Assembly: GCF_003432075.1 (NCBI RefSeq)
Contig: NZ_QWBU01000005.1
Location: 248,001-312,000, forward strand
DNA: 64,000 bases
Source: Shinella sp. WSJ-2
GTDB taxonomy: Bacteria; Pseudomonadota; Alphaproteobacteria; Rhizobiales; Rhizobiaceae
Reading direction: 5' to 3'
Each line of letters opens with the position of its first letter. The stretch's first letter is position 1. Shown here one piece after another: positions 32,166 to 59,390 of this stretch. Both the position numbers and the translations under genes were made by a program. The notes under the pieces were generated by a model. The model saw only the letters and a list, made by a program, of their open reading frames with translations, was not told the DNA's origin and ran no database searches.

Positions 32166-33116
32166 ATGCACAAGGTCATCTTCGATACGGATCCCGGCGT
32201 CGACGACGCCATGGCCCTGCTCTTCCTGCACAATCACCCCGATATCGACCTCATCGGCATCACCACCGTCTTCGGCAATGCCGCAATCGAGACCACGACG
32301 CGCAACGCGCTGTTCCTGAAGCGCGAATGGGGCATTTCGGCGCCGGTCGCGCGTGGTGAAGGCAAGACCTACAATCCCATGCGCAACCCGGTCGACTGGC
32401 CGGTGATGATCCATGGCCATGACGGGCTCGGCAACATCAACGTGCCCGAGACGATCGACCTGCCGGTCGATCCGCGCAGCGCGCCGCGCTTCATCATCGA
32501 GACGGTGCGCGCCAATCCCGGCGAGGTCACGCTGATCGCCGTCGGCCGCATGTCGAACCTCGCCTATGCGCTGAGGGAAGACCCGGAGATTGCCGGCCTC
32601 GTCAAGCAGGTCATCATCATGGGCGGCGCCTTCGACGTGCCCGGCAACATCACGCCCGCCGCCGAAGCCAATATCCACGGCGACCCTGAAGCCGCCGATG
32701 CGGTGATGACCGCACCATGGAAAGTCGTCGTCGTCGGCCTCGACGTGACGATGAAGACCGTCATGACGCGCCGGCGGCTGGCCGAACTCACCGCGCAGAA
32801 CGGCACGCATCTGAAGCTGCTCTCCGACATCTCGCAGTTCTATATCGACTTCTACGGCCGGCACGTGAAGGACGAGGGCATGGTGGTGCATGACAGCTGC
32901 GCCTGCATCTATCTCGTCGCGCCCGAGCTCTTCACCACCCGCAGCGGCGCGATCCGCGTCGTGGCCGGCGGGATCGCCGACGGCCAGACGATCCAGAAGC
33001 CCGACGCTCGCAGTTTCCCGCCCGGCAACTGGGATGATCTGCCGAGCCAGCACGCCTGCATCGGCATCGATGCGGACAAGGTGATGGCGCTGCTCGACGA
33101 AACACTCGTCCGCTGA
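32166..33116 (+). CDS. Inosine-uridine preferring nucleoside hydrolase
   Basis: A 316-residue protein with the calcium-binding signature FDTDPGVDDAMALLF at the N-terminus, ITTVFGNAAIETTTRNAL, IMGGAFDVPGNITPAAEAN and the active-site His region VHDSCACIYLVAPELF. It hydrolyses ribonucleosides to ribose and base for salvage or catabolism in the cytoplasm. AAGAAAGG precedes the ATG. The base and sugar preference cannot be read. Confidence 0.92.
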   Translation: MHKVIFDTDPGVDDAMALLFLHNHPDIDLIGITTVFGNAAIETTTRNALFLKREWGISAPVARGEGKTYNPMRNPVDWPVMIHGHDGLGNINVPETIDLPVDPRSAPRFIIETVRANPGEVTLIAVGRMSNLAYALREDPEIAGLVKQVIIMGGAFDVPGNITPAAEANIHGDPEAADAVMTAPWKVVVVGLDVTMKTVMTRRRLAELTAQNGTHLKLLSDISQFYIDFYGRHVKDEGMVVHDSCACIYLVAPELFTTRSGAIRVVAGGIADGQTIQKPDARSFPPGNWDDLPSQHACIGIDADKVMALLDETLVR

Positions 33117-33125
33117 ACCCTACCG

Positions 33126-33148
33126 CGGCCGGTGACTGCCACCGGCCG
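33126..33148. terminator. Bidirectional hairpin between convergent nucleoside hydrolase and ung
   Basis: CGGCCGGTG (33126-33134), loop ACTGC, CACCGGCCG (33140-33148): a perfect 9-bp stem in a 46-base convergent gap. It has no T-tract, so its strength as a terminator is uncertain. Confidence 0.5.
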
Positions 33149-33162
33149 CATCCCGTCCGCAA

Positions 33163-33858
33163 CTATTGCGCCGTACCCGGCAATTGCCAGTCGATCGGCT
33201 TGCGTCCGTGCTTTTCGAGGAAGGCATTCGCCTTCGAAAACGGTTTCGTGCCGAAGAAGCCGTTATGCGCCGAGAGCGGCGAGGGATGCGGTGAGCGCAG
33301 CACGAGATGGCGTTTGCTGTCGACGAAGGCAGCCTTCTTCTGCGCGTAGGAGCCCCAGAGGATGAAGACGACGGGCTTTTCCTGCTCGTTGACCGCGCGG
33401 ATGACGGCGTCCGTGAACCGCTCCCAGCCCTTGCCCTGGTGGGACGCGGCGCGGCCCATTTCCACGGTCAGCACGCTGTTCAGCAAAAGCACGCCCTGTT
33501 TGGCCCAATGCTCCAGAAAGCCATGACGGGCCGGCGGGATGCCGAGATCGTCCTGCATTTCCTTGTAGATATTGACGAGCGACGGCGGAATGCGCACGCC
33601 GGGCTGTACCGAAAAGCACAGGCCATGCGCCTGCCCCTCGCCGTGATAGGGGTCCTGCCCGAGAATGACGACGCGCACCTCATCGAGCGGCGTGAGGTCG
33701 AGCGCGCGAAAATACTCAGGCCCCTTCGGGAAGATACGGCGCCCCTCCTGCTTCTGCTCCAGCAGGAAAGCCTTCAGATCGGCCATATAGGGGCTGGAAA
33801 ATTCCGCAGCCAGCGGCTCCTTCCAGCTTTCGCCGATTTTCACATCCGTCGCGACCAT
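33163..33858 (-). CDS. ung: Uracil-DNA glycosylase, family 1
   Basis: A 231-residue enzyme with the catalytic motif [40 protein letters not shown] and the DNA-intercalation loop [13 protein letters not shown]. It removes uracil from DNA in base-excision repair. ATG at 33858 is six bases after AAGGAG; an ATG two codons earlier directly abuts that site and is less likely. Confidence 0.96.
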
Positions 33859-33954
33859 CGTCATCTCCTTCGATGAGAGGAGCTTAACGCCGGACATCCA
33901 GAAAAGACCGGCGCGCGCGCCGGTCATCCACAGCAAATCGCATCAAAGCCAATC

Positions 33955-35121
33955 TCAGGCGACGCCGAGAACCGTCATCAGGCTTTTCATGCGCGCAGCG
34001 GCAAGCTCCGGCCTGTCGAGCACATTGGCCCGATCGGCGAGGCGGAAGACATCGGCATAATGCGTGACACCGCGCGCCGACTGCATGCCCGCCGGCATGG
34101 TGAAGTGATCCTGGTGGCCGTTCAGCCAGGCGAGGAACACGACGCCCGCCTTGTAATATTGCGTCGGCGCTTCGAAAATCTTGCGCGACAGCGGCACTGT
34201 CGGCTCGATGACCGCGCGGAACGTATCGACGTCTCCGGCAGCAAGCAAGGCAAGCGCCTTGGAAGCCTGCGGCGCGACGGCATCGAAAATGCCGAGCAGA
34301 GCGTGGCTGTATTTGCTGCCGTCGCCCTCGATCAGTTCGGCATAATTGAAATCATCGCCGGTGAAGCACAGCACGTCCTCCGGCAACCGGTTGCGGAGCG
34401 CGATCTCATAAGCGTTATCGAGCAGCGAGATCTTGATGCCTTCGACTTTGGCCCGGTTCTCCTCGATGATGGAGAGTACGGCATCCAATGCGGGCTCGAA
34501 GCTTTCGGAGCCCCAATAGCCGCGAAGCTGCGGGTCGAACATATCCCCCAGCCAGTGCAGCACGATCTTATCCTTCGCCTGGCCAAGGATGCGGCCATAG
34601 ACCTTGCGATAGTCGTCGGGCGACGTGGCAAGACGGGCAAGCGCCCGGCTCGCCATCATGATCGCCCGGCCACCATGCTTTTCGACGAAGCCGATCTGCT
34701 CCTCATAGGCGCGGATGACGTCATCCAGCGACCGGGCATCGGCGGGGTTGAGATGGTCCGTGCCGGCGCCGCAGGCGAGGTCTGCGCCCGGCACCGTCTT
34801 CGCCTCGGCAAGCGAGCGGCGGATCAGTTCCTGCGCGCCGGGCCAGTCGAGCCCCATGCCGCGCTGCGCCGTATCCATCGCCTCCGCGATGCGGAAGCCG
34901 AGCGACCAGAGATGGTGTCGGAAGGCCATGGTCCGCTCCCAGTCCACCGCCGGCGCCTCCCACGGCCGCGTGTCGCGGCGCGGATCGGAAACGACATGGG
35001 CTGCCGCATAGGCAATGCGGTTGAACATGGGCGTGGAAGCCGGCCGTGCCGTTGGCGTGCCCACGAGAGAATAGGCTTCGACGCCGCCATCGGCACGCGG
35101 CAGGGACAGGCTGATCGGCAT
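33955..35121 (-). CDS. DUF993 protein, dihydrodipicolinate-synthase-like aldolase
   Basis: A 388-residue protein I assign to the DUF993 family, annotated elsewhere as dihydrodipicolinate-synthase-like. It has a TIM-barrel-like pattern, with KVEGIKISLLDNAYE where aldolases of that superfamily carry the Schiff-base Lys, plus CFTGDDFNYAELIEGDG and YSHALLGIFDAVAP. An aldol-cleaving or dehydrating role on a sugar-acid-like compound is inference. GGGAGGA precedes the ATG at 35121; the longer frame would read through its own promoter. It is divergent from the lacI-led catabolic operon and shares its operator, so it belongs to the same pathway. Confidence 0.8.
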   Translation of the reverse strand: MPISLSLPRADGGVEAYSLVGTPTARPASTPMFNRIAYAAAHVVSDPRRDTRPWEAPAVDWERTMAFRHHLWSLGFRIAEAMDTAQRGMGLDWPGAQELIRRSLAEAKTVPGADLACGAGTDHLNPADARSLDDVIRAYEEQIGFVEKHGGRAIMMASRALARLATSPDDYRKVYGRILGQAKDKIVLHWLGDMFDPQLRGYWGSESFEPALDAVLSIIEENRAKVEGIKISLLDNAYEIALRNRLPEDVLCFTGDDFNYAELIEGDGSKYSHALLGIFDAVAPQASKALALLAAGDVDTFRAVIEPTVPLSRKIFEAPTQYYKAGVVFLAWLNGHQDHFTMPAGMQSARGVTHYADVFRLADRANVLDRPELAAARMKSLMTVLGVA

Positions 35122-35153
35122 GAAATCCTCCCAAGGTTTTTCACGGCAATAAT

Positions 35154-35167
35154 TTAGATCGTTCCAA
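35154..35167. promoter_or_regulatory. LacI operator in the DUF993-gene promoter
   Basis: On the minus strand AAATTTGGAACGATCTAAAT lies between TTGAAA (-35-like) and TATTGC (-10-like). The core TTGGAACGATCTAA matches the operator at 35360-35373 in 13 of 14 bases. Confidence 0.7.
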
Positions 35168-35350
35168 ATTTCAAGGGTGATTTTAATCGACGCCCCTTTT
35201 CCTTCGTCATCCTCGGGCTCGACCCAAGTATCTGCAAACGTCGAATAATTGGCCGATACTAGAAGTATCAAGGCGAGCAGGTCTCAATTCACGAGGAGCG
35301 AGACCGAAAATAGGCGGCAGAAACCTCAGCATGAATATGAGGAGCATCAC

Positions 35351-35379
35351 TTGACAAATTTGGAACGATCCAATTATCT
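35351..35379 (+). promoter_or_regulatory. Promoter with embedded operator for the lacI-led catabolic operon
   Basis: TTGACA (35351-35356), 17-base spacer, TTATCT (35374-35379). The spacer carries the palindrome TTGGAACGATCCAA (35360-35373, one mismatched pair, CG centre), so a bound LacI protein would block the promoter directly. The rest of the 303-base divergent gap shows nothing else clear. Confidence 0.75.
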
Positions 35380-35424
35380 AGTATCAACAAGCGGACGAAA
35401 CCTGTCCGCACAGGGAGGAAAATC

Positions 35425-37463
<2,039 letters not shown>

Positions 37464-37482
37464 GGACTATTCGGAAAAGACC

Positions 37483-39096
37483 ATGAGCAAGCATATCACT
37501 CCACGCCAGGCCGCAGACCTCATTCCAGACGGCGCCGTCGTATCGGTCTCCTCGTCCTCCGGCCTCGGTTGCCCGGACCTGACGCTGAAAGCCATCGGCG
37601 AGCGTTTCGACGAGACGGGCCATCCGCAGAGCCTCACGACGGTGCACCCGATCGCGGCCGGCGACATGAGCGGCATCAAGGGTGTCGATTACATCGCGAA
37701 GAAAGGCCTTCTGAAGAAGATCATCGGCGGCTCCTATCCCTCCGGCCCCTCCACATCCGAACCGCCACTGATCTGGCAGATGATCACCGGCAACGAGATT
37801 CCGGCCTACAATATTCCCTCCGGCATCCTGTTCGACATGCACCGCGAGGCCGCCGCCAAGCGCCCCGGCGTCATCACCAAGGTGGGGCTGGAAACCTTCG
37901 TCGATCCGCGCCGGGAAGGCTGCGCGATGAATGCCGCCGCCGCTGAGGAGCCTGTGGTCGAGAAGATCACCTTCGCTGGTGAGGACTGGCTCTATTTCAA
38001 GGCCATCGCGCCGCAGGTGGCGATCATCCGCGCCACCACGGCCGACGAACGCGGCAACCTGACCTATGAGCATGAAGGCGCGTATCTCGGCGGTCTCGAC
38101 CAGGCGCTTGCCGCCCGCAACAATGGCGGCATCGTCATCGCGCAGGTCAAGCGCATCACCAAGGAAGGCTCGCTCAAACCGCATGACGTGCGCGTGCCCG
38201 GCGTGCTGGTCGATTACATCGTGGTCGATCCGGAGCAGAAGCAGACGACGCAGACGCTCTACGACCCTGCCATTTCCGGCGAAATCTTCCGGCCGCTCGA
38301 CTCATTCCGGGTGCCGGAGTTCAACATCCAGAAGGTCATCGCCCGCCGCGTGGCGCAGGAACTCGAGGCCGGCAGCGCGGTCAATCTCGGCTTCGGCATT
38401 TCCGCAAACGTGCCGCGCATCCTGATGGAAGAAGGCCTGCATGGCGCCGTCACCTGGGTCATCGAACAGGGCGCCGTCGGCGGCGTGCCGCTGCTCGACT
38501 TCGCCTTCGGCTGTGCCTCCAATGCCGATGCCTTCATGCCCTCGCCCTACCAATTCACCTATTTCCAGGGTGCGGGCTTCGACGCCTCGCTGCTCTCCTT
38601 CCTGGAAATCGGCAAGGACGGCTCGGTCAATGTCTCGAAGCTCTCCTTCCGGCCGCATGTGACGGCAGGCTGCGGCGGCTTCGTCGATATCACGGCGCGT
38701 GCGAAGAAGATCGTCTTCTCCGGCATGTTCAATGCCGGCGCCAAGCTCGGCATCGAGAACGGCAAGCTGGTGATCGAGAAGGAAGGCAAGCTGAAGAAGC
38801 TGGTCAATGAAGTCGAGCACGTCACCTTCTCCGGCCCGCGCGGCGTGGCGCAGGGGCAGGACATCACCTATGTCACCGAGCGCTGCGTGCTGAAGCTGAC
38901 GCCTGATGGCATCGTGCTCACCGAGATCGCGCCGGGCGTCGATCTTCAGGCGCATATCCTCGACCAATCGGAATTCGACCTCCTCATCTCACCCGATCTC
39001 AAGGTCATGGACGCCGCTCTCTTCACCGACGCGCCGATCGGCCTGACGCTGCCGCAGAAGCCGGCGCGCCAGCTTGCGGGAGCGTTCCATGGCTGA
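37483..39096 (+). CDS. Fused class I CoA-transferase (acyl-CoA:acetate/3-ketoacid type)
   Basis: The 537-residue protein combines the alpha (DLIPDGAVVSVSSSSGLGCP, residues 10-30) and beta halves of class I CoA-transferases in one chain, as in YdiF/propionate CoA-transferase. The second half has VNLGFGISANVPRILMEEGL and the likely catalytic Glu in VTWVIEQGAVGGVPLLDFAF. It would activate an organic acid by moving CoA from a donor such as acetyl- or succinyl-CoA. It overlaps the enoyl-CoA hydratase gene by eight bases, so its product is probably that enzyme's substrate. Confidence 0.9.
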   Translation: MSKHITPRQAADLIPDGAVVSVSSSSGLGCPDLTLKAIGERFDETGHPQSLTTVHPIAAGDMSGIKGVDYIAKKGLLKKIIGGSYPSGPSTSEPPLIWQMITGNEIPAYNIPSGILFDMHREAAAKRPGVITKVGLETFVDPRREGCAMNAAAAEEPVVEKITFAGEDWLYFKAIAPQVAIIRATTADERGNLTYEHEGAYLGGLDQALAARNNGGIVIAQVKRITKEGSLKPHDVRVPGVLVDYIVVDPEQKQTTQTLYDPAISGEIFRPLDSFRVPEFNIQKVIARRVAQELEAGSAVNLGFGISANVPRILMEEGLHGAVTWVIEQGAVGGVPLLDFAFGCASNADAFMPSPYQFTYFQGAGFDASLLSFLEIGKDGSVNVSKLSFRPHVTAGCGGFVDITARAKKIVFSGMFNAGAKLGIENGKLVIEKEGKLKKLVNEVEHVTFSGPRGVAQGQDITYVTERCVLKLTPDGIVLTEIAPGVDLQAHILDQSEFDLLISPDLKVMDAALFTDAPIGLTLPQKPARQLAGAFHG

Positions 39097-39868
39097 GCCG
39101 CGCATCCGTATTTCCGTCGACGGCTTTGTCGCGACGATTACAGTCGCGCGGCCGGAAAAGGCGAATGCCTTCGATATCGACATGCTGAAGGAGCTTTCAG
39201 CCGCCTGCGACGACGTCGAAGCCAATGCCGCCGTGCGTGTCGCCATCCTGACCGGCGAGGGCAAGGCCTTTTCGGCGGGCGGCGATATCCGGGCTTGGGC
39301 CGGCATGGAGGCCAATGAATTCGGCCATGCCTGGGTGCGCTTCGGCCACCGCGTCTTCGAACGGCTGGCGACGCTGCGCATGCCGCTGATCGCCGCCGTC
39401 AACGGCCATGCGCTGGGCGGCGGGCTGGAACTGGCGGCTGCCGCCGACATTCGCATCGCCGAAACGCAGGTGAAGATCGGCCTGCCGGAAGCCGGCCTCG
39501 GCATGGTTCCGGGCTGGTCCGGTACCCAGCGGCTGGTGAAGCGTTTTGGCGCGCAGGCCGTGCGCCGCATGCTGCTCGGCGGTGAAGTGCTGACGGCAGA
39601 CGAGGCGCAGATACTCGGCATCGTCGATCAGGTCGTCGAGACCGGAGCGGTGCTGGACGCCGCGAAGACCTATGCAGCACGCATCATGGCGCGCGGCCCG
39701 GCGGCAACGGAAATTTCCAAGCTGATGATCGCGGTGGCGAACGGCGAAGACAATGGTGCGGCGGTGGAGGCCCTGGGCTCGATCCTCGTCGCCAAGACCG
39801 GGGACCTGAAGGAAGGCGTCGCCGCTTTCACCGGAAAACGCCCCGCAGAGTTCAAGGGAGACTGGTAA
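39089..39868 (+). CDS. Enoyl-CoA hydratase/isomerase (crotonase) family protein
   Basis: A 259-residue crotonase-fold protein: LTGEGKAFSAGGDIRAWAGM and AAVNGHALGGGLELAAAADI form the two oxyanion-hole segments, and GLPEAGLGMVPGWSGTQRLV carries the position of the catalytic Glu. It acts on a CoA ester, most likely the product of the preceding CoA-transferase; hydration, isomerisation or retro-Claisen cleavage are all possible in this family. ATG at 39089 overlaps the upstream stop (GGGAG site). Its stop TAA shares an A with the next ATG (TAATG). Confidence 0.9.
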   Translation: MAEPRIRISVDGFVATITVARPEKANAFDIDMLKELSAACDDVEANAAVRVAILTGEGKAFSAGGDIRAWAGMEANEFGHAWVRFGHRVFERLATLRMPLIAAVNGHALGGGLELAAAADIRIAETQVKIGLPEAGLGMVPGWSGTQRLVKRFGAQAVRRMLLGGEVLTADEAQILGIVDQVVETGAVLDAAKTYAARIMARGPAATEISKLMIAVANGEDNGAAVEALGSILVAKTGDLKEGVAAFTGKRPAEFKGDW

Positions 39869-41373
39869 TGACCGCGCATGTGAAACCCAAGGCGCTTGAC
39901 AATTTCAAGGCACGCGATTTTCGCATGCTGATCGACGGCGTCTGGACGGAAGGTTCCGGCAATGCGCTTGAGCGCGTCGCTCCTGGCCATGGCGTCGTGG
40001 TGAGCCGCTACCCGACTGGCAGCAAGGCCGACGCGGAGCGCGCCATCGCGGCTGCCCGCAAGGCTTTCGACAATGGCCCGTGGCCGAGTATGACGGGTGC
40101 CGAGCGCTCCAATATCCTGCTCAAGGCCGCCGAACTTATCGCCGCCCGTGCCGACGATCTCGCCTTCCTCGACTGCATCGAATCCGGCAAACCGATCAGC
40201 CAGGCCAAGGCCGAGCTTGGCGGCGCCGTCGATATCTGGCGCTATGCCGCAGCCCTTGCCCGCGATCTGCACGGCGAAAGCTACAACACGCTGGGCGATG
40301 GCACGCTCGGCGTCGTGCTGCGCGAGGCGATCGGCGTCGTCTCGATCATCACGCCGTGGAATTTCCCCTTCCTGATCGTCAGCCAGAAGCTGCCCTTCGC
40401 GCTCGCCGCCGGCTGCACGACCGTCGTCAAGCCGTCCGAACTCACCTCCGGCTCGACGCTCGTCCTCGGCGAAATCCTCATCGAGGCCGGCGTGCCGGCC
40501 GGTGTCGTCAACATCATCACCGGCACCGGCCCGGAAGTCGGCGCGCCGATGACCACGCACCCCGATGTCGACATGGTCTCCTTCACCGGCTCCACCGGTG
40601 TCGGCCGTCTCACGATGGCCAATGCAGCGCAGACTCTGAAAAAGGTGTCGCTGGAACTCGGCGGCAAGAACCCGCAGATCGTCTTCCCGGATGCCGACCT
40701 CGACGCCTTCATCGATGCCGCCGTCTTCGGCGCCTATTTCAACGCCGGTGAATGCTGCAACGCCGGCTCGCGGCTGATCCTGCACAAATCCATCGCCGCC
40801 GACGTAACGGCCCGCATCGCCGAGCTTGCAAAGAAGGTCAAGGTCGGCGATCCGCTCGACCCAACGACGCAGGTCGGCGCGATCATCACGCCCCAGCATC
40901 TCGAAAAGATCGCCACCTATGTCGATGGCGCTTCCAAGGCAGGCGCTTCTGTGGCGCTGGGTGGTGCTGCCCTCGATCTCGGGCTCGGCCAGTTCATGGC
41001 ACCGACCATCCTTTCCGGCGTGCAGCCGAACATGGCCGTCGCCCGTGAAGAAGTTTTCGGTCCGGTTCTTTCCGTCCTAACCTTCGAGACGACGGAAGAA
41101 GCGATCCGCATCGCCAACGCCATCGACTACGGCCTGTCGGCCGGCGTCTGGAGCCGCGATTTCGACACCTGCCTGACGGTCGGCCGCAAGGTGTGCGCCG
41201 GCACGGTCTGGATGAACACCTTCATGGACGGCGCATCAGAACTGCCCTTCGGCGGTTATCGCCAGTCCGGCCTCGGCCGCGAGCTCGGCCGCCATGCGGT
41301 GGAGGACTATACCGAGACCAAGACGCTCAACATGCATATCGGCGCCCGCACCGGCTGGTGGATGCCGCGATGA
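39868..41373 (+). CDS. NAD(P)-dependent aldehyde dehydrogenase
   Basis: A 501-residue ALDH of usual length. Cofactor segment SIITPWNFPFLIVSQKLPFA, general-base region VSLELGGKNPQIVFPDADL, and the nucleophile in NAGECCNAGSRLILH, where either of two adjacent Cys could serve; EVFGPVLSVLTFE and ELPFGGYRQSGLGRELG are typical. It oxidises an aldehyde made in this pathway, perhaps released by the DUF993 aldolase-like enzyme. It is the last gene of the operon starting at 35425. Confidence 0.93.
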   Translation: MTAHVKPKALDNFKARDFRMLIDGVWTEGSGNALERVAPGHGVVVSRYPTGSKADAERAIAAARKAFDNGPWPSMTGAERSNILLKAAELIAARADDLAFLDCIESGKPISQAKAELGGAVDIWRYAAALARDLHGESYNTLGDGTLGVVLREAIGVVSIITPWNFPFLIVSQKLPFALAAGCTTVVKPSELTSGSTLVLGEILIEAGVPAGVVNIITGTGPEVGAPMTTHPDVDMVSFTGSTGVGRLTMANAAQTLKKVSLELGGKNPQIVFPDADLDAFIDAAVFGAYFNAGECCNAGSRLILHKSIAADVTARIAELAKKVKVGDPLDPTTQVGAIITPQHLEKIATYVDGASKAGASVALGGAALDLGLGQFMAPTILSGVQPNMAVAREEVFGPVLSVLTFETTEEAIRIANAIDYGLSAGVWSRDFDTCLTVGRKVCAGTVWMNTFMDGASELPFGGYRQSGLGRELGRHAVEDYTETKTLNMHIGARTGWWMPR

Positions 41374-41420
41374 CAAGACCCTTCCCGACAACCATGGATG
41401 GGACTGGCTCCGCCGCCCGC

Positions 41421-42473
41421 TCAGGGCGTCGGGAAGCTGAATTGCGGGCTTTGCAGGATCGTCAGGCCCTCGACCGGCTCGCCGGCAATGCGTTGCAACA
41501 GCAAGCTGCCCATGCCTTCGCCGGCCGCCTTCAGGTCCTCGTAGATGGTCTCGACCTTCGGCTGGATCTGGCTGAGCAGCCGCGACGTTTGCTTGGCGAC
41601 GATGTCGTATTCCACACCGAGCGACAGGCCGTTGTCGCTCATGCCGGTAATTGTGGCGAGCGCGGAAACTTCGCCAGGACAGGTATATCCATCCGGCGCA
41701 TCGGGCTCCGTGCTGCGGCGGCGCATGTAGTCGCGGATCATGTCGGCGGGGCTGTCGAGATCGAGCGCCTCGGGAATCTCGTAGGCGACGCCGGCCTCGC
41801 GCACGGCGGTCATGAAGCCGTGCAGCATGTGCTGACAGAAGGTCAGCCGCTTGGGCGGCAGGATGATCGTGACCTTGCGCCGGCCCTTGACGATCAGCCG
41901 CTTGGTGGCCTCGTAGGCGAAGGCGAAGTTGTCGTAGTCGACGAAGGCATGCGGGGTGGAGAACTCCGTACGGCCGTGCGTGACGAAGGGAAAGCCGTTT
42001 TCCAGCAGCAGCCGCACACGCGGATCGAACGGCTCGGTGCGCGAGAAAATCAGGCCGTCGGCCATGCCGTTGCGGATGATGTAGTTGACCGCATCGACAT
42101 TGCTGCCGTCGAGAAAATTCGGCGTGACGATGAGATGGTAGGGCGTCGCCTGAAGCGCCCGCGCCAGGCCGTGCATGATGGACGTGCCGAAGCCCAGGAT
42201 TTCCTCGTGCGGATCGAGCAGGACGGAAATGACATTGGTGCGGCCGGTCTTGAGACGCTGCGCGGCGCGGTCCGGCAGGTAGCCGATCTCGGCTGCCACC
42301 TCGTGCACGCGACGCCTTGTGCTCTCGGAAATCTGGGGCGCATTGCCGAGCGCGCGCGACACCGTGGTGATCGCAAACCCCGTCAGTTCCGCGATCGTCT
42401 TCAGCGTCGGCTTGCCGGCTCGAAGCGGGTTGCGGGCGGTTTCACTGTCGGCGGGCTTTTCGATGCGGGACAC
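41421..42473 (-). CDS. LacI-family regulator of the adjacent sugar import/oxidation operon
   Basis: About 350 residues with the helix-turn-helix PTLKTIAELTGFAITTVSRA and an effector domain of the AglR/RafR-like subgroup (TNVISVLLDPHEEILGFGTS, ADGLIFSRTEPFDPRV). It is divergent from the ABC/GMC operon and is its natural repressor, with CG-centred A/T-rich palindromes in the gap. GTG at 42473, seven bases after GAAGAAG, is my start; ATG at 42578 would add 35 residues unlike the family and run into an operator. It is convergent with the aldehyde dehydrogenase gene. Confidence 0.85.
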   Translation of the reverse strand: MSRIEKPADSETARNPLRAGKPTLKTIAELTGFAITTVSRALGNAPQISESTRRRVHEVAAEIGYLPDRAAQRLKTGRTNVISVLLDPHEEILGFGTSIMHGLARALQATPYHLIVTPNFLDGSNVDAVNYIIRNGMADGLIFSRTEPFDPRVRLLLENGFPFVTHGRTEFSTPHAFVDYDNFAFAYEATKRLIVKGRRKVTIILPPKRLTFCQHMLHGFMTAVREAGVAYEIPEALDLDSPADMIRDYMRRRSTEPDAPDGYTCPGEVSALATITGMSDNGLSLGVEYDIVAKQTSRLLSQIQPKVETIYEDLKAAGEGMGSLLLQRIAGEPVEGLTILQSPQFSFPTP

Positions 42474-42555
42474 GGGCAGGCTTCTTCGGATGGGGAACGT
42501 CGATTCCCGGCACCATATCGAGCGTCTCGCCCCTGGGCAATCTTGCGCTGCACAG

Positions 42556-42574
42556 AATTTAAAACGTTTTCGAT
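42556..42574. promoter_or_regulatory. LacI operator candidate on the regulator side
   Basis: AATTTAAAACGTTTTCGAT contains the perfect 10-base palindrome AAAACGTTTT (42561-42570). It resembles the site at 42680-42699 and lies 124 bases from it, centre to centre, a spacing compatible with looping. Confidence 0.55.
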
Positions 42575-42668
42575 GCATCGCACAAAGCGTTACGTTTTTA
42601 AGAAATCGCTGAAATCGCCTGAATTTATCGCAATCTCAAAGACAGTTGCCGCACCTTTCCGTGGCGAC

Positions 42669-42699
42669 TTGACTCCGCAAATTTACAACGTTTTAAATT
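42669..42699 (+). promoter_or_regulatory. Promoter/operator of the sugar ABC-GMC operon
   Basis: AATTTACAACGTTTTAAATT (42680-42699) is a 20-base palindrome with one mismatched pair and a CG centre, as for LacI proteins. It overlaps TTGACT (42669-42674), 17 bases, TTTAAA (42692-42697), a plausible promoter. The remaining ~100-base leader before 42806 shows nothing clear. Confidence 0.65.
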
Positions 42700-42805
42700 G
42701 GCGCGGCGCTTTGAGCCATAGACTGGATTCCGACGCTCTCAAGGGCCTCGGTCATATCGGCGGGAGGAGGCTCTCGCCCTCGAACTTGCAAACGGGAGGA
42801 ATACA

Positions 42806-44056
42806 ATGCGCAAGTTTCTGACGACCACTGCAGCGATTGCGGTGCTGATGGGCCTAGGCGGCACGGCCGCTCGCGCCGCTGAAAATGTGGAGGTTCTGCA
42901 CTGGTGGACGTCGGGCGGTGAAGCTGCCGCTCTCGACGTTCTCAAGAAGGACCTCGAATCCAAGGGCATTTCCTGGACCGACATGCCGGTTGCCGGCGGT
43001 GGCGGGACGGAAGCCATGACGGTTCTGCGCGCCCGCGTCACGGCCGGCAACGCGCCGACCGCCGTGCAGATGCTCGGTTTCGACATTCTCGACTGGGCCA
43101 AGGAAGGCGCGCTCGGCAATCTCGACGAAGTGGCCGCCAAGGAAGGCTGGGACAAGGTAATCCCGACCGCCCTGCAGCAGTTCTCGAAATATGATGGCCA
43201 CTGGATCGCGGCTCCCGTCAACGTCCACTCCACCAACTGGATGTGGATCAACAAGGCGGCCCTCGACAAGGCCGGCGGCAAGGAGCCGGCAAACTGGGAC
43301 GAACTCGTCGCCCTGCTCGACAAGTTCAAGGAACAGGGCATCACGCCGGTCGCCCATGGTGGCCAGCCGTGGCAGGACGCGACGATCTTCGACGCGGTCG
43401 TGCTCTCCTTCGGCAACGACTTCTACAAGAAGGCCTTCATCGATCTCGATCCGGACACGCTGGGCGGCGCCCAGATGAAGGAAGCGTTCGACCGCATGAC
43501 GAAGCTGCGCTCCTATGTGGACGACAACTTCTCGGGCCGCGACTGGAACCTGGCTTCTGCCATGGTCATCGAAGGCAAGGCCGGTCTGCAGTTCATGGGC
43601 GACTGGGCAAAGGGCGAATTCATCAAGGCCGGCAAGAAGCCGGGCTCGGATTTCGTCTGCATGCGCTTCCCGGGCACGCAGGGCTCGGTCACCTTCAACT
43701 CCGACCAGTTCGCGATGTTCAAGGTTGCCGCAGAGAAGGTTCCGGCCCAGCTCGTCATGGCCTCGGCCATCGAGAACCCGACCTTCCAGTCGGCCTTCAA
43801 CGTGGTCAAGGGCTCGGCCCCGGCCCGCACCGACGTCTCGGATGAAGCCTTCGACGATTGCGGCAAGAAGGCCATCAAGGACCTCGCGGAAGCCAACACC
43901 AACGGCACGCTGTTCGGCTCCATGGCGCATGGCCACGCAAACCCGGCCTCCGTCAAGAACGCGATCTATGACGTCGTGACCCGCCAGTTCAACGGCGAGC
44001 TTTCCTCCGAGGAAGCCGTGACGGAACTCAAGGCCGCCGTCGAGGCCGCGAAATAA
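42806..44056 (+). CDS. Sugar ABC transporter substrate-binding protein (CUT1, GtsA-like)
   Basis: A 416-residue extracellular solute-binding protein family 1 member with a signal peptide ([20 protein letters not shown], cleavage near residue 25) and the cluster pattern [56 protein letters not shown] and [20 protein letters not shown], which strongly recall glucose/mannose-type (GtsA/GlcE) proteins. It starts the operon, with GGGAGGA before the ATG. A RIME-like palindrome separates it from the permease genes and may raise its level relative to them. Confidence 0.92.
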
Positions 44057-44060
44057 GGGG

Positions 44061-44166
44061 CCAGCCCCTCACCCTACCCTCTCCCCGCTGGGGAGAGGGA
44101 TTTGAACGTCGCGGCAAAGCCCTTCTCCCCGCGGGGAGAAGGTGGCGGCAGCCGGATGAGGGGGCC
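44061..44166. repeat. RIME-like rhizobial intergenic palindromic element
   Basis: The element has two perfect stems, CCCTCTCCCC/GGGGAGAGGG (44077-44086, 44090-44099) and CCTTCTCCCC/GGGGAGAAGG (44121-44130, 44133-44142), enclosed by CCCCTCACCC and GGATGAGGGGG ends. This is the known layout of RIME elements of Rhizobium and relatives. It lies inside the operon between binding protein and permease. Confidence 0.85.
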
Positions 44167-44207
44167 ACGCGCCGCCCTGCAACCCGATTTCAACGGTGGT
44201 ATCGACC

Positions 44208-45089
44208 ATGGATAGCCGAAGCCGGCTGCAGGAGCTTCTGCCGAAGCTCGTGCTGGCACCCAGTTTCCTCATCGTGCTCGTCTTCGTCTACGGCTTCATC
44301 GCCTATACGGGCTTCCTGTCGCTGACGGACAGCAAGATGCTGCCCTCCTACAATTTCGTGGGATTGAGCAACTATTCCAAGCTCTGGGCGCTGCCGCACT
44401 GGTGGCGGGCGGTTTCCAACCTTGCGATCTTCGCCTCGCTCTACATCGTCATCTGCTCGGTGCTCGGCCTGGCGCTCGCCATCCTGCTCGACCAGAAGAT
44501 CCGCGCCGAAGGCATACTCAGACCGATCTATCTCTACCCAATGGCGCTCTCCTTCATCGTGACAGGCACGGCCTGGAAGTGGTTCCTCGATCCCGGCATC
44601 GGGCTTGAGAACACCATGCATCTCTGGGGCTGGGAAAGCTTTTCCTTCAACTGGATCAAGGACCGCAACTACGCCATCTACTGCGTGGTCATCGCCGCCG
44701 TCTGGCAGTCGTCCGGCTTCGTCATGGCTATGTTCCTCGCCGGGCTTCGCGGCGTCGACAACGAGATCATCAAAGCCGCCCAGATCGACGGCGCCTCGAC
44801 CTCGACCATCTACCGCCGCATCATCATTCCGCTGATGCGCCCGGTCTTCCTGTCGGCCTTTGTCGTGCTCGCCCACCTCGCCATCAAGGCCTACGACCTC
44901 GTGGTCGCCTTGACGGGCGGCGGGCCGGGACAGGCGACCGAGCTGCCGGCGACCTTCATGTATTCCTACACCTTCACCCGCAACCAGATGGGCATCGGCG
45001 CCTCCTCCGCGATCATCATGCTGGTCATGATCTTCTCGATCATCATCCCCTACCTCTATTCCGAAATCCGCGGAGGCAAAGGCCGATGA
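44208..45089 (+). CDS. Sugar ABC transporter permease (MalF/GtsB type)
   Basis: A 293-residue permease with six spans; LVLAPSFLIVLVFVYGFIAY opens it and the coupling loop is EIIKAAQIDGASTSTIYRRI, the EAA motif of carbohydrate importers, followed by LTGGGPGQATELPATFM. ATG at 44208 is preferred over GTG at 44196; neither has a strong ribosome site, and translation may depend on the upstream RNA. It overlaps the next permease gene by ATGA. Confidence 0.92.
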   Translation: MDSRSRLQELLPKLVLAPSFLIVLVFVYGFIAYTGFLSLTDSKMLPSYNFVGLSNYSKLWALPHWWRAVSNLAIFASLYIVICSVLGLALAILLDQKIRAEGILRPIYLYPMALSFIVTGTAWKWFLDPGIGLENTMHLWGWESFSFNWIKDRNYAIYCVVIAAVWQSSGFVMAMFLAGLRGVDNEIIKAAQIDGASTSTIYRRIIIPLMRPVFLSAFVVLAHLAIKAYDLVVALTGGGPGQATELPATFMYSYTFTRNQMGIGASSAIIMLVMIFSIIIPYLYSEIRGGKGR

Positions 45090-45967: not shown

Positions 45968-45972
45968 CGCTC

Positions 45973-47088
<1,116 letters not shown>

Positions 47089-47097
47089 GATTTTTCA

Positions 47098-48597
47098 ATG
47101 ACCACGCAGCCGGACATCGTCATCATCGGATCGGGCATCGGCGGCTCCACCATGGCAGCCGCCCTCGCCGGCTCGGGCGCGCGCATCGTCATCCTCGAGC
47201 GCGGCGAGCGCCTGCCCGATACACCCGAGACGCGCAGCTACCGCTCGATCTTCGTCGACGGCCATTTCCGACCGAAGGAGATGTGGCGCGAGCCAGACGG
47301 TACGGCGTTCAATCCGGGCAATTTCTATTTCGTCGGCGGCAACTCCAAGCTCTTCGGCGCGGTGCTCCTGCGCTATCGCGCCGAGGATTTCACCGAGATG
47401 CAGCATCTCGGCGGCGTCTCGCCGGCCTGGCCCTTCCCCTACGAGGAGCTGGAGCCGTGGTATGGAAAGGCCGAGCGCCTGTTCGAGGTGCGCGGCGAAC
47501 TGGGCCAGGACCCGACCGAACCGCACCATTCCACGCCCTATCCGCACGGCCCCGTGCCGGACGAGCCGGCGATCGCCCGCGCCCGCGCCGAACTGAAGGC
47601 GCAGGGGCTCAATCCGGCGACCCTGCCGCTCGGCGTCGATATCGACACATGGCTTGCCGGCGGGCGCACGCCCTGGGACGGCTTTCCCAACGCCGGCCAA
47701 GGCAAGAGGGATGCGGAGACCGCGCCGCTCGCCGCCGCCCTGCTCGACCCTGACATTACGCTTGTCACCTCCGCCCATGTCGATACGCTGGAGGAAGGAC
47801 CGGACGGCCGGATCACCGCGATCCACTACACCCACGGCGGAGAGAGGAAGCGGCTTTCCCCGAAACTCGTCATCCTGTCGGCGGGCGCGATCAACTCGGC
47901 CGCGATCCTGCTGCGCTCCGGCAACGGCAAGGGGCTCGCCAACAGTTCCGACCAGGTCGGCCGCAACTTCATGAACCACAATTGCAGCGCCATGCTCGCG
48001 ATCAACCCGTTCCGGCGCAACGACAGCATCTACCAGAAGACACTGATGCTGAACGACTATTACCTGACCGGCGGTCGCGACGGCCTGCCGCTCGGCAATG
48101 TCCAGCTGCTGGGCAAGATCAACGGCGACATCCTGAAAGCCAACGCGCCGGTCTATGCCCCGCGCTTCGCGCTCGACTTCATGGCCGGCCACGCAATCGA
48201 CTGGTACATGATGACCGAGGACCTGCCCAATCCCGAAAGCCGCATCATGGTCGACGGCAAGGGCATCGTCATGCAATGGCGGCGTTCCAACATGGAGGCG
48301 CTATCGGGCCTGGAGGCGAAAATGCGCGCTCATTTCAAGGCCGCTGGCTACCCGATCGTCCTCACGCAGCCCTTCGACAAGCGCACCCCCTCGCATCAGT
48401 GCGGCACGGTGCGCATGGGCCTTGATCCGGCCACCGCCCCGCTCGACCCCTATTGCCGCGCCTTCGATCACGCCAATCTCTACGTCGTCGACGGCGGCTG
48501 CCTGCCGACCTCGGCAGCCGTCAATCCGGCGCTCACCATCGCCGCCCAGGCGTTGCGCGTCGCCGACCATATCCGCGCAAAGGAGCTTTCGGCATGA
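47098..48597 (+). CDS. GMC-family flavin oxidoreductase (sugar or polyol dehydrogenase-like)
   Basis: A 499-residue protein with the FAD-binding DIVIIGSGIGGSTMAAAL start, FVGGNSKLFGAVLLRYRAED, and at the C-terminus the catalytic SHQCGTVRMG and NLYVVDGGCLPTSAAVNPAL, giving His and Asn of the GMC_oxred_C active site. No signal peptide, so it is cytoplasmic. The branch resembles bacterial sugar or glucoside dehydrogenases such as those making 3-keto-sugars, but this is inference. It follows the ATPase gene by nine bases and overlaps the SDR gene by ATGA. Confidence 0.88.
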   Translation: MTTQPDIVIIGSGIGGSTMAAALAGSGARIVILERGERLPDTPETRSYRSIFVDGHFRPKEMWREPDGTAFNPGNFYFVGGNSKLFGAVLLRYRAEDFTEMQHLGGVSPAWPFPYEELEPWYGKAERLFEVRGELGQDPTEPHHSTPYPHGPVPDEPAIARARAELKAQGLNPATLPLGVDIDTWLAGGRTPWDGFPNAGQGKRDAETAPLAAALLDPDITLVTSAHVDTLEEGPDGRITAIHYTHGGERKRLSPKLVILSAGAINSAAILLRSGNGKGLANSSDQVGRNFMNHNCSAMLAINPFRRNDSIYQKTLMLNDYYLTGGRDGLPLGNVQLLGKINGDILKANAPVYAPRFALDFMAGHAIDWYMMTEDLPNPESRIMVDGKGIVMQWRRSNMEALSGLEAKMRAHFKAAGYPIVLTQPFDKRTPSHQCGTVRMGLDPATAPLDPYCRAFDHANLYVVDGGCLPTSAAVNPALTIAAQALRVADHIRAKELSA

Positions 48598-49364
48598 CCC
48601 GCCCCGTCGCCATCGTCACCGGCGGCCGCCGGGGTATCGGCCTCGGCATCGCGAAAGCCCTCGCCGCCGAAGGCTTCGACATCGCCGTCACCGGTATCGG
48701 CGACAGCGATACCACCACCGACGCGATGATCGCCGACCTCGCCCGGCTCGGCGCCCATGCAATCTATCTCAAGGGCGATCTTGCCGATCTCTCCGGCCAT
48801 GCGGCCACCGTCGCGGCCATCGAAGACCGGCTCGGGGCAATCGCCTGCCTCGTCAACAATGCCGGTATCGCCTCCGTCGTGCGCGGCGATTTCCTCGATC
48901 TGGCGCCGGAGAATTTCGACACGATCGTCTCGACCAATCTGCGCGGCACAGTGTTCTTCACCCAAGCCGTGCTGAAGGCGATGTTGCAGTCGAAACAGGC
49001 GGCCGGTCCACGCGCGATCATCAACATCACCTCCGTCTCGGCCGGCCTCACTTCGCCCGAGCGGCTCGATTATTGCATGACCAAGGCCGGCCTTGCCGCC
49101 TTCAGCCAGGGGCTGGCGATCAGGCTCGCCGATACCGGCATCTCCGTCTTCGAAATCCGCCCGGGCATCATCCGCTCCGACATGACGGCCACCGTCTCCA
49201 CGAAATACGACGCGCTGATCGAAGGCGGCCTTGTGCCGATGAAGCGCTGGGGCGAGCCTGACGATATCGGTTCCGTCGCAGCCGCCTTGGCATCCGGCAA
49301 ATTCGCCTTCGCCACCGGCTCGGTGATCAATCTCGACGGCGGGCTGTCGATCGGCCGGCTCTGA
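48594..49364 (+). CDS. Short-chain dehydrogenase/reductase
   Basis: A classical SDR of 256 residues: AIVTGGRRGIGLGIAKALAA cofactor motif at the start, LVNNAGIASVV, catalytic Ser in INITSVSAGL and Tyr/Lys in LDYCMTKAGLAAF, ending TGSVINLDGGLSIGRL. Starts at the ATGA overlap with the GMC gene; the frame is open upstream only as a shadow of that gene. It probably reduces or oxidises a hydroxyl/keto group on the imported substrate, between the two GMC enzymes. Confidence 0.93.
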   Translation: MTRPVAIVTGGRRGIGLGIAKALAAEGFDIAVTGIGDSDTTTDAMIADLARLGAHAIYLKGDLADLSGHAATVAAIEDRLGAIACLVNNAGIASVVRGDFLDLAPENFDTIVSTNLRGTVFFTQAVLKAMLQSKQAAGPRAIINITSVSAGLTSPERLDYCMTKAGLAAFSQGLAIRLADTGISVFEIRPGIIRSDMTATVSTKYDALIEGGLVPMKRWGEPDDIGSVAAALASGKFAFATGSVINLDGGLSIGRL

Positions 49365-49384
49365 AAACTGTTAAGGACCAAGGC

Positions 49385-51040: not shown

Positions 51041-51048
51041 GGGGAACC

Positions 51049-51366
51049 ATGATCCGCCACTGCGTCTTCATCCGCTTCAAGCCGACCATTTCCGTCGCCT
51101 ACAAGACCGAGCTTTTCAACGAGATCGATGCCCTGAAGGACCGCCTTCCGGGCATGGTCGCCGTGCATATCGGCACCAATGTCAGCCCGGAAACCGGCAT
51201 GGACAAGGGCTTTTCCGACGGCTTCATCGTCGATTTCGCCGACAGCTTTTCGCGTGATGCCTATCTGGAGGATCCCGAGCATAAGCAGACGGGTGGTCGC
51301 CTGGTTGCGGCCGCCGAGGGCGGCGTCGCCGGCATCCTCGTCTATGACCTAGAAACCGACGACTAG
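51049..51366 (+). CDS. Dabb (stress-responsive alpha/beta barrel) domain protein
   Basis: A 105-residue single-domain ferredoxin-like protein beginning MIRHCVFIRFKPTISVAYKT with the Dabb pattern VAVHIGTNVSPE, FSDGFIVDFADSFSRDAYLE and DPEHKQTGG. Dabb proteins occur as dimers, some being small enzymes on sugar or polyketide intermediates. Its place eight bases behind the second GMC gene suggests it processes an unstable keto-product. Its TAG stop lies in a CTAG shared with the stop of the convergent permease gene. Confidence 0.88.
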   Translation: MIRHCVFIRFKPTISVAYKTELFNEIDALKDRLPGMVAVHIGTNVSPETGMDKGFSDGFIVDFADSFSRDAYLEDPEHKQTGGRLVAAAEGGVAGILVYDLETDD

Positions 51367-54198: not shown

Positions 54199-54218
54199 GA
54201 AAGCCTTTCTAGGGAGAA

Positions 54219-54242
54219 CCCTCCGCCCGGCCGGGCGAAGGG
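54219..54242 (-). other. Intercistronic hairpin between binding protein and permease genes
   Basis: CGCCCGGCCGGGCG is a perfect inverted repeat, extended by CCCT/AGGG ends after mismatches. There is no T-tract. It probably limits decay or read-through so that more binding protein than permease is made. Confidence 0.5.
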
Positions 54243-54252
54243 TGATCGCGGC

Positions 54253-59365: not shown

Positions 59366-59390
59366 GATCGTTCCCTCTTCTGTTGTTTTC

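What the first reader, a model, noticed from the sequence alone, without database searches (positions are those of the whole stretch)
33955..41373. LacI-controlled catabolic cluster combining a DUF993 aldolase-like protein, Gfo/Idh/MocA dehydrogenase, fused CoA-transferase, crotonase and ALDH
Six genes on two divergent transcripts share an operator and are tightly overlapped, so they form one pathway. The enzyme set (oxidation, CoA activation, crotonase step, aldol-like cleavage, aldehyde oxidation) matches no textbook route I can name. A CoA-transferase next to a sugar-type dehydrogenase suggests degradation of a carbocyclic or branched polyol/sugar acid via CoA esters. The motifs and the shared operators are seen; the common pathway and the kind of substrate are inference.
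Basis: partly seen in the sequence, partly recalled or inferred. Interest (0 to 1): 0.75.

Follow-up and report, generated by a model that had tools for sequence, protein, structure and literature searches.

The report
Anhydro-sugar breakdown cluster with orphan aldolase
Soil bacteria of the root-nodule family carry a conserved set of genes that starts with a known enzyme for the unusual starch-derived sugar 1,5-anhydrofructose and continues with enzymes nobody has assigned, which makes the missing steps of that sugar's breakdown, and the role of an uncharacterised protein family, directly testable.

Summary
The six genes are at the stated place. Two near-identical LacI-type operators (35153-35168, 35359-35374) lie between the divergent transcripts; 101 of 102 distinct DUF993-LacI intergenic regions have such a pair. 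The 'Gfo/Idh/MocA dehydrogenase' matches 1,5-anhydro-D-fructose reductase (AFR; PDB 4koa, 2glx) end to end. The unit extends to 51363 with an ABC importer, two GMC oxidoreductases, an SDR and a Dabb protein. In diverged relatives these genes form one gene string that includes DUF993. In 297 family genomes, 72 of 73 with AFR also have DUF993, against 40 of 224 without; 68 of 73 have both within 15 kb. DUF993 has a DHDPS-like fold and an invariant candidate Schiff-base lysine (195 of 195). Best reading: anhydrohexitol catabolism by oxidation to the acid, CoA activation, crotonase elimination and ring opening to 2-keto-3-deoxygluconate, which DUF993 would split. Steps after AFR are inferred; 13 of 14 AFR-less clusters also lack linked DUF993. 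The only aerobic route I found described (to mannose via an unidentified oxygenase) differs.

The parts
33955..35121 (-). DUF993 protein (388 aa); candidate class I (Schiff-base) aldolase, DHDPS-like fold
   Evidence: PF06187 617 bits; AF2 model mean pLDDT 92.5; Foldseek: 4dnh, then DHDPS entries E about 1e-9; K230 and H189 invariant in 195 of 195 distinct sequences at 50% identity or more
35153..35168 (-). LacI-type operator 1, on the DUF993 side
35359..35374 (+). LacI-type operator 2, on the LacI-AFR operon side
35425..36465 (+). LacI-family repressor (GTG start)
   Evidence: PF00356 + PF00532
36462..37463 (+). 1,5-anhydro-D-fructose reductase (AFR) orthologue
   Evidence: full-length phmmer match to 4koa (E 1e-173) and 2glx (E 3e-172); K94 of EKP, D176 and H180 in 119 of 119 distinct relatives at 50% identity or more
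37483..39096 (+). fused CoA-transferase (YdiF type)
   Evidence: PF01144; 2ahu YdiF E 1e-111; E328 in EQGxxGG in 150 of 150 distinct relatives at 55% identity or more
39089..39868 (+). crotonase-family enoyl-CoA hydratase/dehydratase
   Evidence: PF00378; E114 and E134, which I take as the two hydratase glutamates, in 148 of 148 distinct relatives at 40% identity or more
39868..41373 (+). NAD(P)-dependent aldehyde dehydrogenase
   Evidence: PF00171; C297 and E263 in 134 of 134
41421..42578 (-). second, divergent LacI-like regulator, not present in every relative
   Evidence: PF00356; no match between ALDH and SBP in e.g. L187, L188, L195
42682..42697 (.). palindrome TTTACAACGTTTTAAA, candidate operator of the second regulator
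   Evidence: one mismatch between arms; conservation not tested
42806..44056 (+). sugar ABC transporter, solute-binding protein
   Evidence: PF01547
44196..45089 (+). ABC permease A
   Evidence: PF00528
45086..45967 (+). ABC permease B
   Evidence: PF00528
45973..47088 (+). ABC ATPase with MalK-type OB domain
   Evidence: PF00005, PF17912
47098..48597 (+). GMC1: GMC oxidoreductase, nearest solved relatives FAD glucose/fructose dehydrogenases (ring oxidation?)
48594..49364 (+). SDR dehydrogenase/reductase
   Evidence: PF13561
49385..51040 (+). GMC2: GMC oxidoreductase related to primary-alcohol enzymes; S. meliloti SMc04390, the likely orthologue, is listed as 'L-sorbose dehydrogenase'
   Evidence: H466 in 40 of 40
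51049..51363 (+). Dabb (stress-responsive A/B barrel) protein
   Evidence: PF07876; between GMC2 and DUF993 in most of the diverged gene strings

Best explanation
This is a LacI-controlled catabolic cluster for 1,5-anhydro-sugars (1,5-anhydro-D-fructose, AF, and probably 1,5-anhydro-D-glucitol, AG), in which AFR makes 1,5-anhydro-D-mannitol (AM) and a CoA-dependent route follows. Proposed order: (1) ABC import [inferred from homology]; (2) AG to AF by ring-oxidising GMC1 [inferred]; (3) AF to AM by AFR [reaction published for orthologues]; (4) the C6 alcohol to the acid by GMC2 and ALDH [inferred; analogous to sorbose/sorbosone dehydrogenases]; (5) CoA ester by the CoA-transferase [inferred; catalytic Glu present]; (6) crotonase removes the C4 hydroxyl with the C5 proton; the resulting enol ether is hydrated and the ring opens, perhaps helped by the Dabb protein, leaving 2-keto-3-deoxy-D-gluconate (KDG) [inferred; both hydratase glutamates present]; (7) DUF993, acting as a lysine-dependent aldolase, cleaves it to pyruvate and D-glyceraldehyde [inferred from fold, conserved lysine, position]; (8) ALDH and a glycerate kinase (in the clusters of several relatives, not in this window) finish. 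The inversion at C2 by AFR is what makes the product KDG rather than 2-keto-3-deoxy-L-galactonate. The SDR has no assigned step.
For: AFR identity: full-length match to 4koa and 2glx, key residues 119 of 119. Genome level, 297 genomes: 72 of 73 with AFR have DUF993 against 40 of 224 without; 73 of 73 have the CoA-transferase; 68 of 73 AFR and DUF993 within 15 kb. AFR and CoA-transferase matches are neighbours on one strand in 121 distinct loci, 117 of them with a gap of at most 60 bases. Diverged relatives: 12 of 15 loci with AFR at 51-57% identity carry DUF993 in the same gene string as AFR, CoAT, ECH, ABC, GMC1, SDR and GMC2; the other three are cut by contig ends. Operator pair in 101 of 102. 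DUF993: DHDPS-like fold; K230 falls on the DHDPS Schiff-base lysine in the profile alignment and is invariant in 195 of 195. Glycerate kinase lies beside DUF993 clusters in S. meliloti Ak57, Microvirga, Oryzibacter, 7 of 13 type-2 loci and six diverged loci. Fischer bookkeeping, done by hand in a script, gives D-KDG from anhydromannitol and L-KDGal from anhydroglucitol.
Against: Nothing after AFR has been measured. The published account has AM going to mannose through an unidentified P450-like enzyme (PMC12441222 passages). In the 297 genomes, 14 clusters of this type have the CoA-transferase but no AFR; 13 of them have no DUF993 on that contig (7 none in the genome, 6 on another contig), so the core can run without either; the 14th (L298), and L129 and L139 outside that sample, have DUF993 but no AFR. 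AFR has no linked DUF993 in two loci not cut by a contig end (G639, G634). DUF993 lacks the DHDPS catalytic tyrosine (His in its place) and the GTTGE motif, and matches no aldolase family by HMM. The DUF993-DHDPS profile match is weak (probability 3.7%, E 0.012; a global alignment in the same call found nothing). In type-2 clusters DUF993 sits with acyl-CoA dehydrogenase and ETF, and in 52 of 195 loci with a xylose-isomerase-like protein and no CoA-transferase within 10 kb, so its substrate need not be tied to this route. No glycerate kinase is in the window (best tblastn E 0.99). The only inducer I found for what is probably the S. meliloti binding protein is dextrin (PMC4960864), which does not name the substrate.
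Confidence: 0.45

Rival explanations
1. Published route: AF is reduced to AM by AFR and AM is hydroxylated at C1 to mannose by an oxygenase encoded elsewhere; the CoA-transferase, crotonase, ALDH and DUF993 serve another substrate that shares the regulator.
For: Stated for Sinorhizobium morelense in PMC12441222 (passages). P450 genes occur in 59 of the 60 AFR-bearing genomes given to (60 of the 73).
Against: No oxygenase family among the Pfam matches of the cluster genes. G634, a near-complete genome with AFR at 62%, has no P450 match. AFR never occurs without the CoA-transferase in the sample (73 of 73), and of 99 distinct loci with AFR, CoA-transferase and DUF993, 98 have the crotonase and 95 the ALDH within 10 kb.
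Confidence: 0.2
2. Beta-oxidation-like route: the acyl-CoA is oxidised by the SDR at the beta-hydroxyl, and DUF993 takes the thiolase place, cleaving a beta-keto acid or beta-ketoacyl-CoA (as DUF849 enzymes are recalled to do) rather than a 2-keto-3-deoxy acid.
For: Type-2 clusters combine CoAT, ACAD, ECH, SDR and DUF993 (13 distinct loci), with ETF genes in the annotated one; no thiolase is among the annotated features of the two such regions shown. The SDR is in both cluster types.
Against: DUF993 resembles DHDPS, with a lysine at the Schiff-base position. 52 of 195 distinct DUF993 loci have the isomerase-like protein but no CoA-transferase within 10 kb.
Confidence: 0.2
3. The true substrate is a glycoside, an osone or a dextrin end-product; AF is only a substrate analogue for AFR in vitro.
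For: AFR also reduces 2-keto-aldoses (recalled from the AFR literature, not seen here). The probable S. meliloti binding protein gene SMc04396 is reported as dextrin-induced (PMC4960864 passage).
Against: The strain in which the route was worked out was isolated on AF as sole carbon source (PMC12441222 passage). No glycosidase is among the Pfam matches of the cluster genes.
Confidence: 0.2
4. Mere neighbours: unrelated genes held together by descent within one family of bacteria.
For: The genomes compared are related, so counts are not independent (sampled one family).
Against: Gene order differs (DUF993 divergent in one set, at the 3' side of the gene string in another) while the content is kept; operator pair in 101 of 102; the same enzyme kinds recur in type-2 clusters.
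Confidence: 0.03

Closest known systems
1,5-anhydro-D-fructose reductase (AFR) of Sinorhizobium morelense / S. meliloti (PDB 2glx, 4koa)
   Same: Window protein 36462-37463 matches both over its whole length, with the key residues kept; the organism names of the two entries are recalled
   Different: Nothing in the sequence argues against the same activity; cofactor and substrate were not measured here
Published aerobic AF route of Rhizobiaceae (AF to anhydromannitol to mannose)
   Same: First enzyme
   Different: This cluster has no oxygenase family match, but has CoA-transferase, crotonase, ALDH, two GMC enzymes, SDR, Dabb and DUF993
DUF993 structure 4dnh (SMc04132, S. meliloti 1021, uncharacterised)
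   Same: Same family, 56% identity over 389 alignment columns to the model of the window protein
   Different: Its gene lies elsewhere, among SMc04133-04139, listed as oxidoreductases and an ABC binding protein
DHDPS / N-acetylneuraminate lyase / KDG aldolase superfamily
   Same: Barrel fold, TM about 0.6 (query) and 0.8 (target); lysine at the Schiff-base position
   Different: His where DHDPS has Tyr133, no GTTGE motif, no PF00701 match
Anaerobic AG/AM routes of gut bacteria (YbiW, PflD glycyl-radical enzymes)
   Same: Same kind of substrate
   Different: Phosphorylated and radical-based (PMC12441222 passage); here apparently aerobic and CoA-based, with no kinase or PTS among the cluster genes
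Levoglucosan and C-glycoside clusters (Gfo/Idh/MocA plus xylose-isomerase-like protein; recalled)
   Same: Gfo/Idh/MocA enzyme beside sugar import; many DUF993 loci do have the isomerase-like protein
   Different: The window cluster has no such protein; its Gfo enzyme scores 101 bits against a cut-off of 650 for levoglucosan dehydrogenase

Membership tests
1,5-anhydro-D-fructose reductase | Full-length orthology to characterised AFR | tested here: met
   E 1.3e-173 to 4koa and 3.4e-172 to 2glx; the next solved relative is at 6.8e-36
1,5-anhydro-D-fructose reductase | Gfo/Idh/MocA catalytic residues (EKP lysine, D176, H180) | tested here: met
   119 of 119 distinct relatives at 50% identity or more; residue roles recalled
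1,5-anhydro-D-fructose reductase | NADPH-dependent reduction of AF to AM | not testable with these tools
   needs purified enzyme
DHDPS/NAL class I aldolases | TIM-barrel DHDPS-like fold | tested here: met
   Foldseek, DHDPS entries at E about 1e-9 to 1e-8, TM-target 0.7-0.84
DHDPS/NAL class I aldolases | Schiff-base lysine on strand 6 | tested here: inconclusive
   K230 aligned with the DHDPS lysine in a weak profile alignment; invariant 195 of 195
DHDPS/NAL class I aldolases | Catalytic tyrosine and GTTGE motif | tested here: not met
   H189 opposite the tyrosine; MDTAQRG in place of the motif; the alignment is weak
DHDPS/NAL class I aldolases | Match to the family profile | tested here: not met
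   Only PF06187 in Pfam; no NCBIfam match
Published AF-to-mannose pathway | AFR gene | tested here: met
Published AF-to-mannose pathway | Oxygenase for anhydromannitol in the cluster | tested here: not met
   No oxygenase family among the cluster genes; P450 genes exist elsewhere in the genome
Enoyl-CoA hydratase/dehydratase | Both catalytic glutamates | tested here: met
   E114 and E134 in 148 of 148; residue roles recalled from rat hydratase
Class I CoA-transferase (YdiF type) | Catalytic glutamate | tested here: met
   E328 in 150 of 150; 2ahu match; residue role recalled

The most novel reading that the evidence does not exclude
An aerobic, phosphate-free, CoA-dependent Entner-Doudoroff-like route for 1,5-anhydrohexitols: the ether ring is opened by crotonase chemistry on a sugar-acid CoA thioester, AFR's inversion at C2 exists to make the product D-KDG, and DUF993 is the first member of its family with a function, a KDG-type aldolase with histidine in place of the DHDPS tyrosine.
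Probability: 0.25. Interest if true: 0.8.

Novelty: new variant of a known kind. Interest (0 to 1): 0.58.

Why it matters
AFR was characterised years ago, but a 2025 review still calls the next enzyme of the rhizobial route unidentified (PMC12441222 passage). The operon given here is a short list of candidates for it, with a stereochemical prediction that one mutant set and a few assays can settle. It also gives a first pathway context to DUF993, a family with a solved structure (4dnh), no function in any paper my searches found, and members in 112 of 297 sampled family genomes and 24 of 299 sampled phylum genomes. [quoted passage not shown]

Tried and rejected
Carbocyclic or inositol substrate: the Gfo/Idh enzyme scores 152 bits against a cut-off of 355 for inositol 2-dehydrogenase but matches AFR end to end; rejected. 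Levoglucosan cluster: 101 bits against a cut-off of 650, no isomerase-like partner here; rejected. Ferulate-type CoA/crotonase/vanillin-dehydrogenase logic: considered, dropped because of AFR and the sugar importer. DUF993 by sequence alone: no NCBIfam match and one meaningful PDB match, 4dnh, without function; the fold search was needed. First DHDPS alignment used one locus on the wrong strand; rebuilt with strands corrected. P450 co-occurrence does not discriminate, since P450s are nearly everywhere. RNA elements: none in 33000-52000 at E up to 0.1.

Literature, all in an open-licence library: 'DUF993' 0 papers; SMc04132, PF06187, 'DUF 993' 1 paper, of which I saw passages of a proteome table; SMc04400/04399/04401/04396 2 papers, passages seen; SMc04392/04393/04394/04395/04397/04398 1 paper, passages seen; AF with Rhizobiaceae 1 paper, passages seen; AF or anhydroglucitol with bacteria and catabolism 15 papers, 14 listed, listing only apart from PMC12441222; AF reductase 32 papers, 30 listed, listing only apart from PMC12441222; anhydroglucitol, dehydrogenase and Agrobacterium 0. 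That the pathway is not in print rests on these searches alone; the original AFR papers were not among the papers I saw and are recalled.


Full report
Observation. The six genes lie where stated, with tight spacing. Two LacI-type operators flank the 303-base divergent region, one per transcript (35153-35168 and 35359-35374). A pattern made to cover both has two zero-mismatch matches in the 5.1 Mb genome, these two, and two more with one mismatch. In the fetched loci, 102 distinct DUF993-LacI divergent intergenic regions of 100-700 bases were scanned for TTGGAACGTTCCAA with up to 3 mismatches: 101 have at least two sites, the exception is L143, and 1 of 10,200 mononucleotide shuffles reached two (an earlier count without removing duplicates was 112 of 113).

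The dehydrogenase is AFR. The 333-aa Gfo/Idh/MocA protein matches the two 1,5-anhydro-D-fructose reductase entries 4koa and 2glx over its full length at E 1e-173 and 3e-172; the next solved relative is at 7e-36. The lysine of EKP and the D176/H180 pair are present in 119 of 119 distinct relatives at 50% identity or more. I saw the biology of this substrate only in passages of PMC12441222: Rhizobiaceae convert AF to anhydromannitol and then, through a still unidentified P450-like enzyme, to mannose. The original AFR papers were not seen and what I say of them is recalled.

The unit is larger than 33955-41373. Annotated relatives continue with an SBP, two permeases, an ATPase, GMC oxidoreductase 1, an SDR, GMC oxidoreductase 2 and, in some, a Dabb protein or a glycerate kinase. 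In the window this runs to 51363; no glycerate kinase is in the window. PMC12542648 (passages) lists SMc04390, 04391 and 04392 as L-sorbose dehydrogenase, SDR and dehydrogenase, the same order as GMC2-SDR-GMC1. With AFR being SMc04400 (recalled) and SMc04401 a regulator (PMC4560400 passages), the S. meliloti counterpart is probably SMc04390-04401, and SMc04396, reported as dextrin-induced (PMC4960864 passage), would be its binding protein. This mapping is inference.

Linkage. The same request drew 297 genomes of the family three times, which I take as one set. AFR (E up to 1e-100) is in 73, DUF993 in 112 (one of them only a fragment at 2.6e-6), the CoA-transferase (E up to 1e-180) in 97. 72 of the 73 AFR genomes have DUF993 and 40 of the 224 others do; 89 of 97 CoA-transferase genomes have DUF993 and 23 of 200 others do; 73 of 73 AFR genomes have the CoA-transferase (Fisher p for the first about 1e-38, not corrected for relatedness). 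68 of 73 AFR-DUF993 pairs share a contig, 56 within 5 kb and all 68 within 15 kb, start to start. The five others are G570 (no DUF993 found; its cluster runs into a contig end), G604 and G461 (clusters cut by contig ends), and G639 and G634 (unlinked although not cut; flanks read). AFR and CoA-transferase matches are neighbours on one strand in 121 distinct loci, 117 with a gap of at most 60 bases.

A rearranged form. Fifteen loci have AFR at only 51-57% identity (L225-L239). Twelve carry the string AFR-CoAT-ECH-ALDH-SBP-PermA-PermB-ATPase-GMC1-SDR-GMC2-Dabb-DUF993-LacI on one strand, with small differences in four (Dabb elsewhere in L228 and L229; LacI moved and no ALDH match in L236; an extra SBP match in L238). 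The other three are cut by contig ends. A glycerate kinase is within 10 kb of DUF993 in six of the twelve. Same content in a different order is good evidence for one pathway.

Against a simple chain. Fourteen CoA-transferase clusters of this type in the sample lack AFR (L280-L291, L298, L299; L299 is a 4.6 kb contig). LacI then abuts the CoA-transferase gene in several. Thirteen of the 14 have no DUF993 on that contig: seven genomes have none at all and six have one on another contig; L298 keeps it beside LacI. Outside that sample L129 and L139 also have DUF993 without AFR. So the core (CoA-transferase, crotonase, ALDH, GMC1, SDR, GMC2, importer) can exist without AFR and DUF993, and these two tend to come and go together (68, 5, 1, 13; p about 1e-10, same caveat). 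An annotated plasmid locus, Rhizobium sp. CCGE532, likewise has the AFR operon without DUF993 beside it.

DUF993 beyond this cluster. Of 195 distinct DUF993 loci, 99 have AFR and CoA-transferase within 10 kb (98 also the crotonase, 95 the ALDH, 98 the LacI); 13 have CoA-transferase and acyl-CoA dehydrogenase, all 13 also with SDR, crotonase and an isomerase-like protein; 8 have acyl-CoA dehydrogenase without CoA-transferase (three are enterobacteria-type clusters with ETF); 7 have CoA-transferase only; 52 have the isomerase-like protein without CoA-transferase; 16 fall in none of these, but 12 of those have the diverged gene string, whose AFR and CoA-transferase lie more than 10 kb away where they were read (not for L098). 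This sample was gathered around DUF993 and AFR and leans to relatives of the window, and some loci are cut short. The window's own genome has a second DUF993 in a cluster of the acyl-CoA dehydrogenase kind (G000:C26; a homologous annotated region is).

DUF993 as an aldolase. No HMM of known function matches. The AF2 model (39-sequence alignment, mean pLDDT 92.5) matches 4dnh, the uncharacterised SMc04132, and then DHDPS entries at E about 1e-9. A profile alignment of 83 DUF993 with 19 DHDPS-family proteins of relatives is weak (E 0.012, probability 3.7%; the global mode found nothing) but runs over 232 columns and puts K230 on the Schiff-base lysine and H189 on the catalytic tyrosine. K230, H189, D83, T84, Q86 and R87 are invariant in 195 of 195. 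I therefore call it a likely lysine-dependent aldolase with an altered active site, not a member of PF00701.

Mechanism. GMC2 resembles choline dehydrogenase, a chloramphenicol-inactivating oxidoreductase and alcohol oxidases and with ALDH would turn C6 into the acid. The CoA-transferase (YdiF type, Glu present) would activate it, and the crotonase, which keeps both hydratase glutamates in 148 of 148, could eliminate the C4 hydroxyl with the now acidic C5 proton. The product is an enol ether; water opens the ring to a 2-keto-3-deoxy acid. Only C2 and C3 of the sugar keep their configuration. By Fischer bookkeeping anhydromannitol gives D-KDG and anhydroglucitol gives L-KDGal. That would explain why AFR inverts C2 and why AFR and DUF993 tend to be lost together. 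KDG cleavage gives pyruvate and D-glyceraldehyde, and glycerate kinase genes beside these clusters fit the second product. All of this after AFR is inference; the SDR has no place in it, which is a weakness, and a beta-oxidation-like rival uses it.

Verdict. I rate it a new variant of a known kind.

Noticed in passing
window 20385-20492 (-): Rfam match RF02496, Rhizobiales sRNA Atu_At1, 116.8 bits.
   Followed up: no
own genome, G000:C26:1034-2170 (L095): Second DUF993 gene in another cluster: isomerase-like protein, SDR, acyl-CoA dehydrogenase, crotonase, CoA-transferase, GMC, ALDH.
   Followed up: partly
window 44057-44195: Between SBP and permease A lie GC-rich inverted repeats (CTCTCCCC...GGGGAGAG and CTTCTCCCCGCGGGGAGAAG), looking like a dispersed palindromic element (sequence).
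   Followed up: no
window 51366-55149 (-): Glycine-betaine type ABC importer (OpuAC binding protein, two permeases, ATPase) directly after the cluster.
   Followed up: no
window 57386-59377 (-): Copper amine oxidase, enzyme domain at 400 bits.
   Followed up: no
NZ_CP084753.1 (L240): Record named Roseateles sp. XES5 (flagged UNVERIFIED_ORG) has the same length, 895176, as contig C2 of G012, which is placed in the window's own genus; the name is probably wrong.
   Followed up: partly
L179 (Frankia sp. RB7 contig): Its DUF993 neighbourhood looks like those of the Bradyrhizobium loci; possibly contaminated or misnamed.
   Followed up: no
L140, L144, L167: Enterobacteria (Dryocola, Raoultella, Enterobacter) have DUF993 beside ALDH, GMC, ETF-QO, acyl-CoA dehydrogenase and an isomerase-like protein; possibly easier genetics for this family.
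   Followed up: partly
L290:11719-13818: In a cluster without AFR and DUF993 a 700-aa FAD-binding protein follows the LacI gene; role unknown.
   Followed up: no
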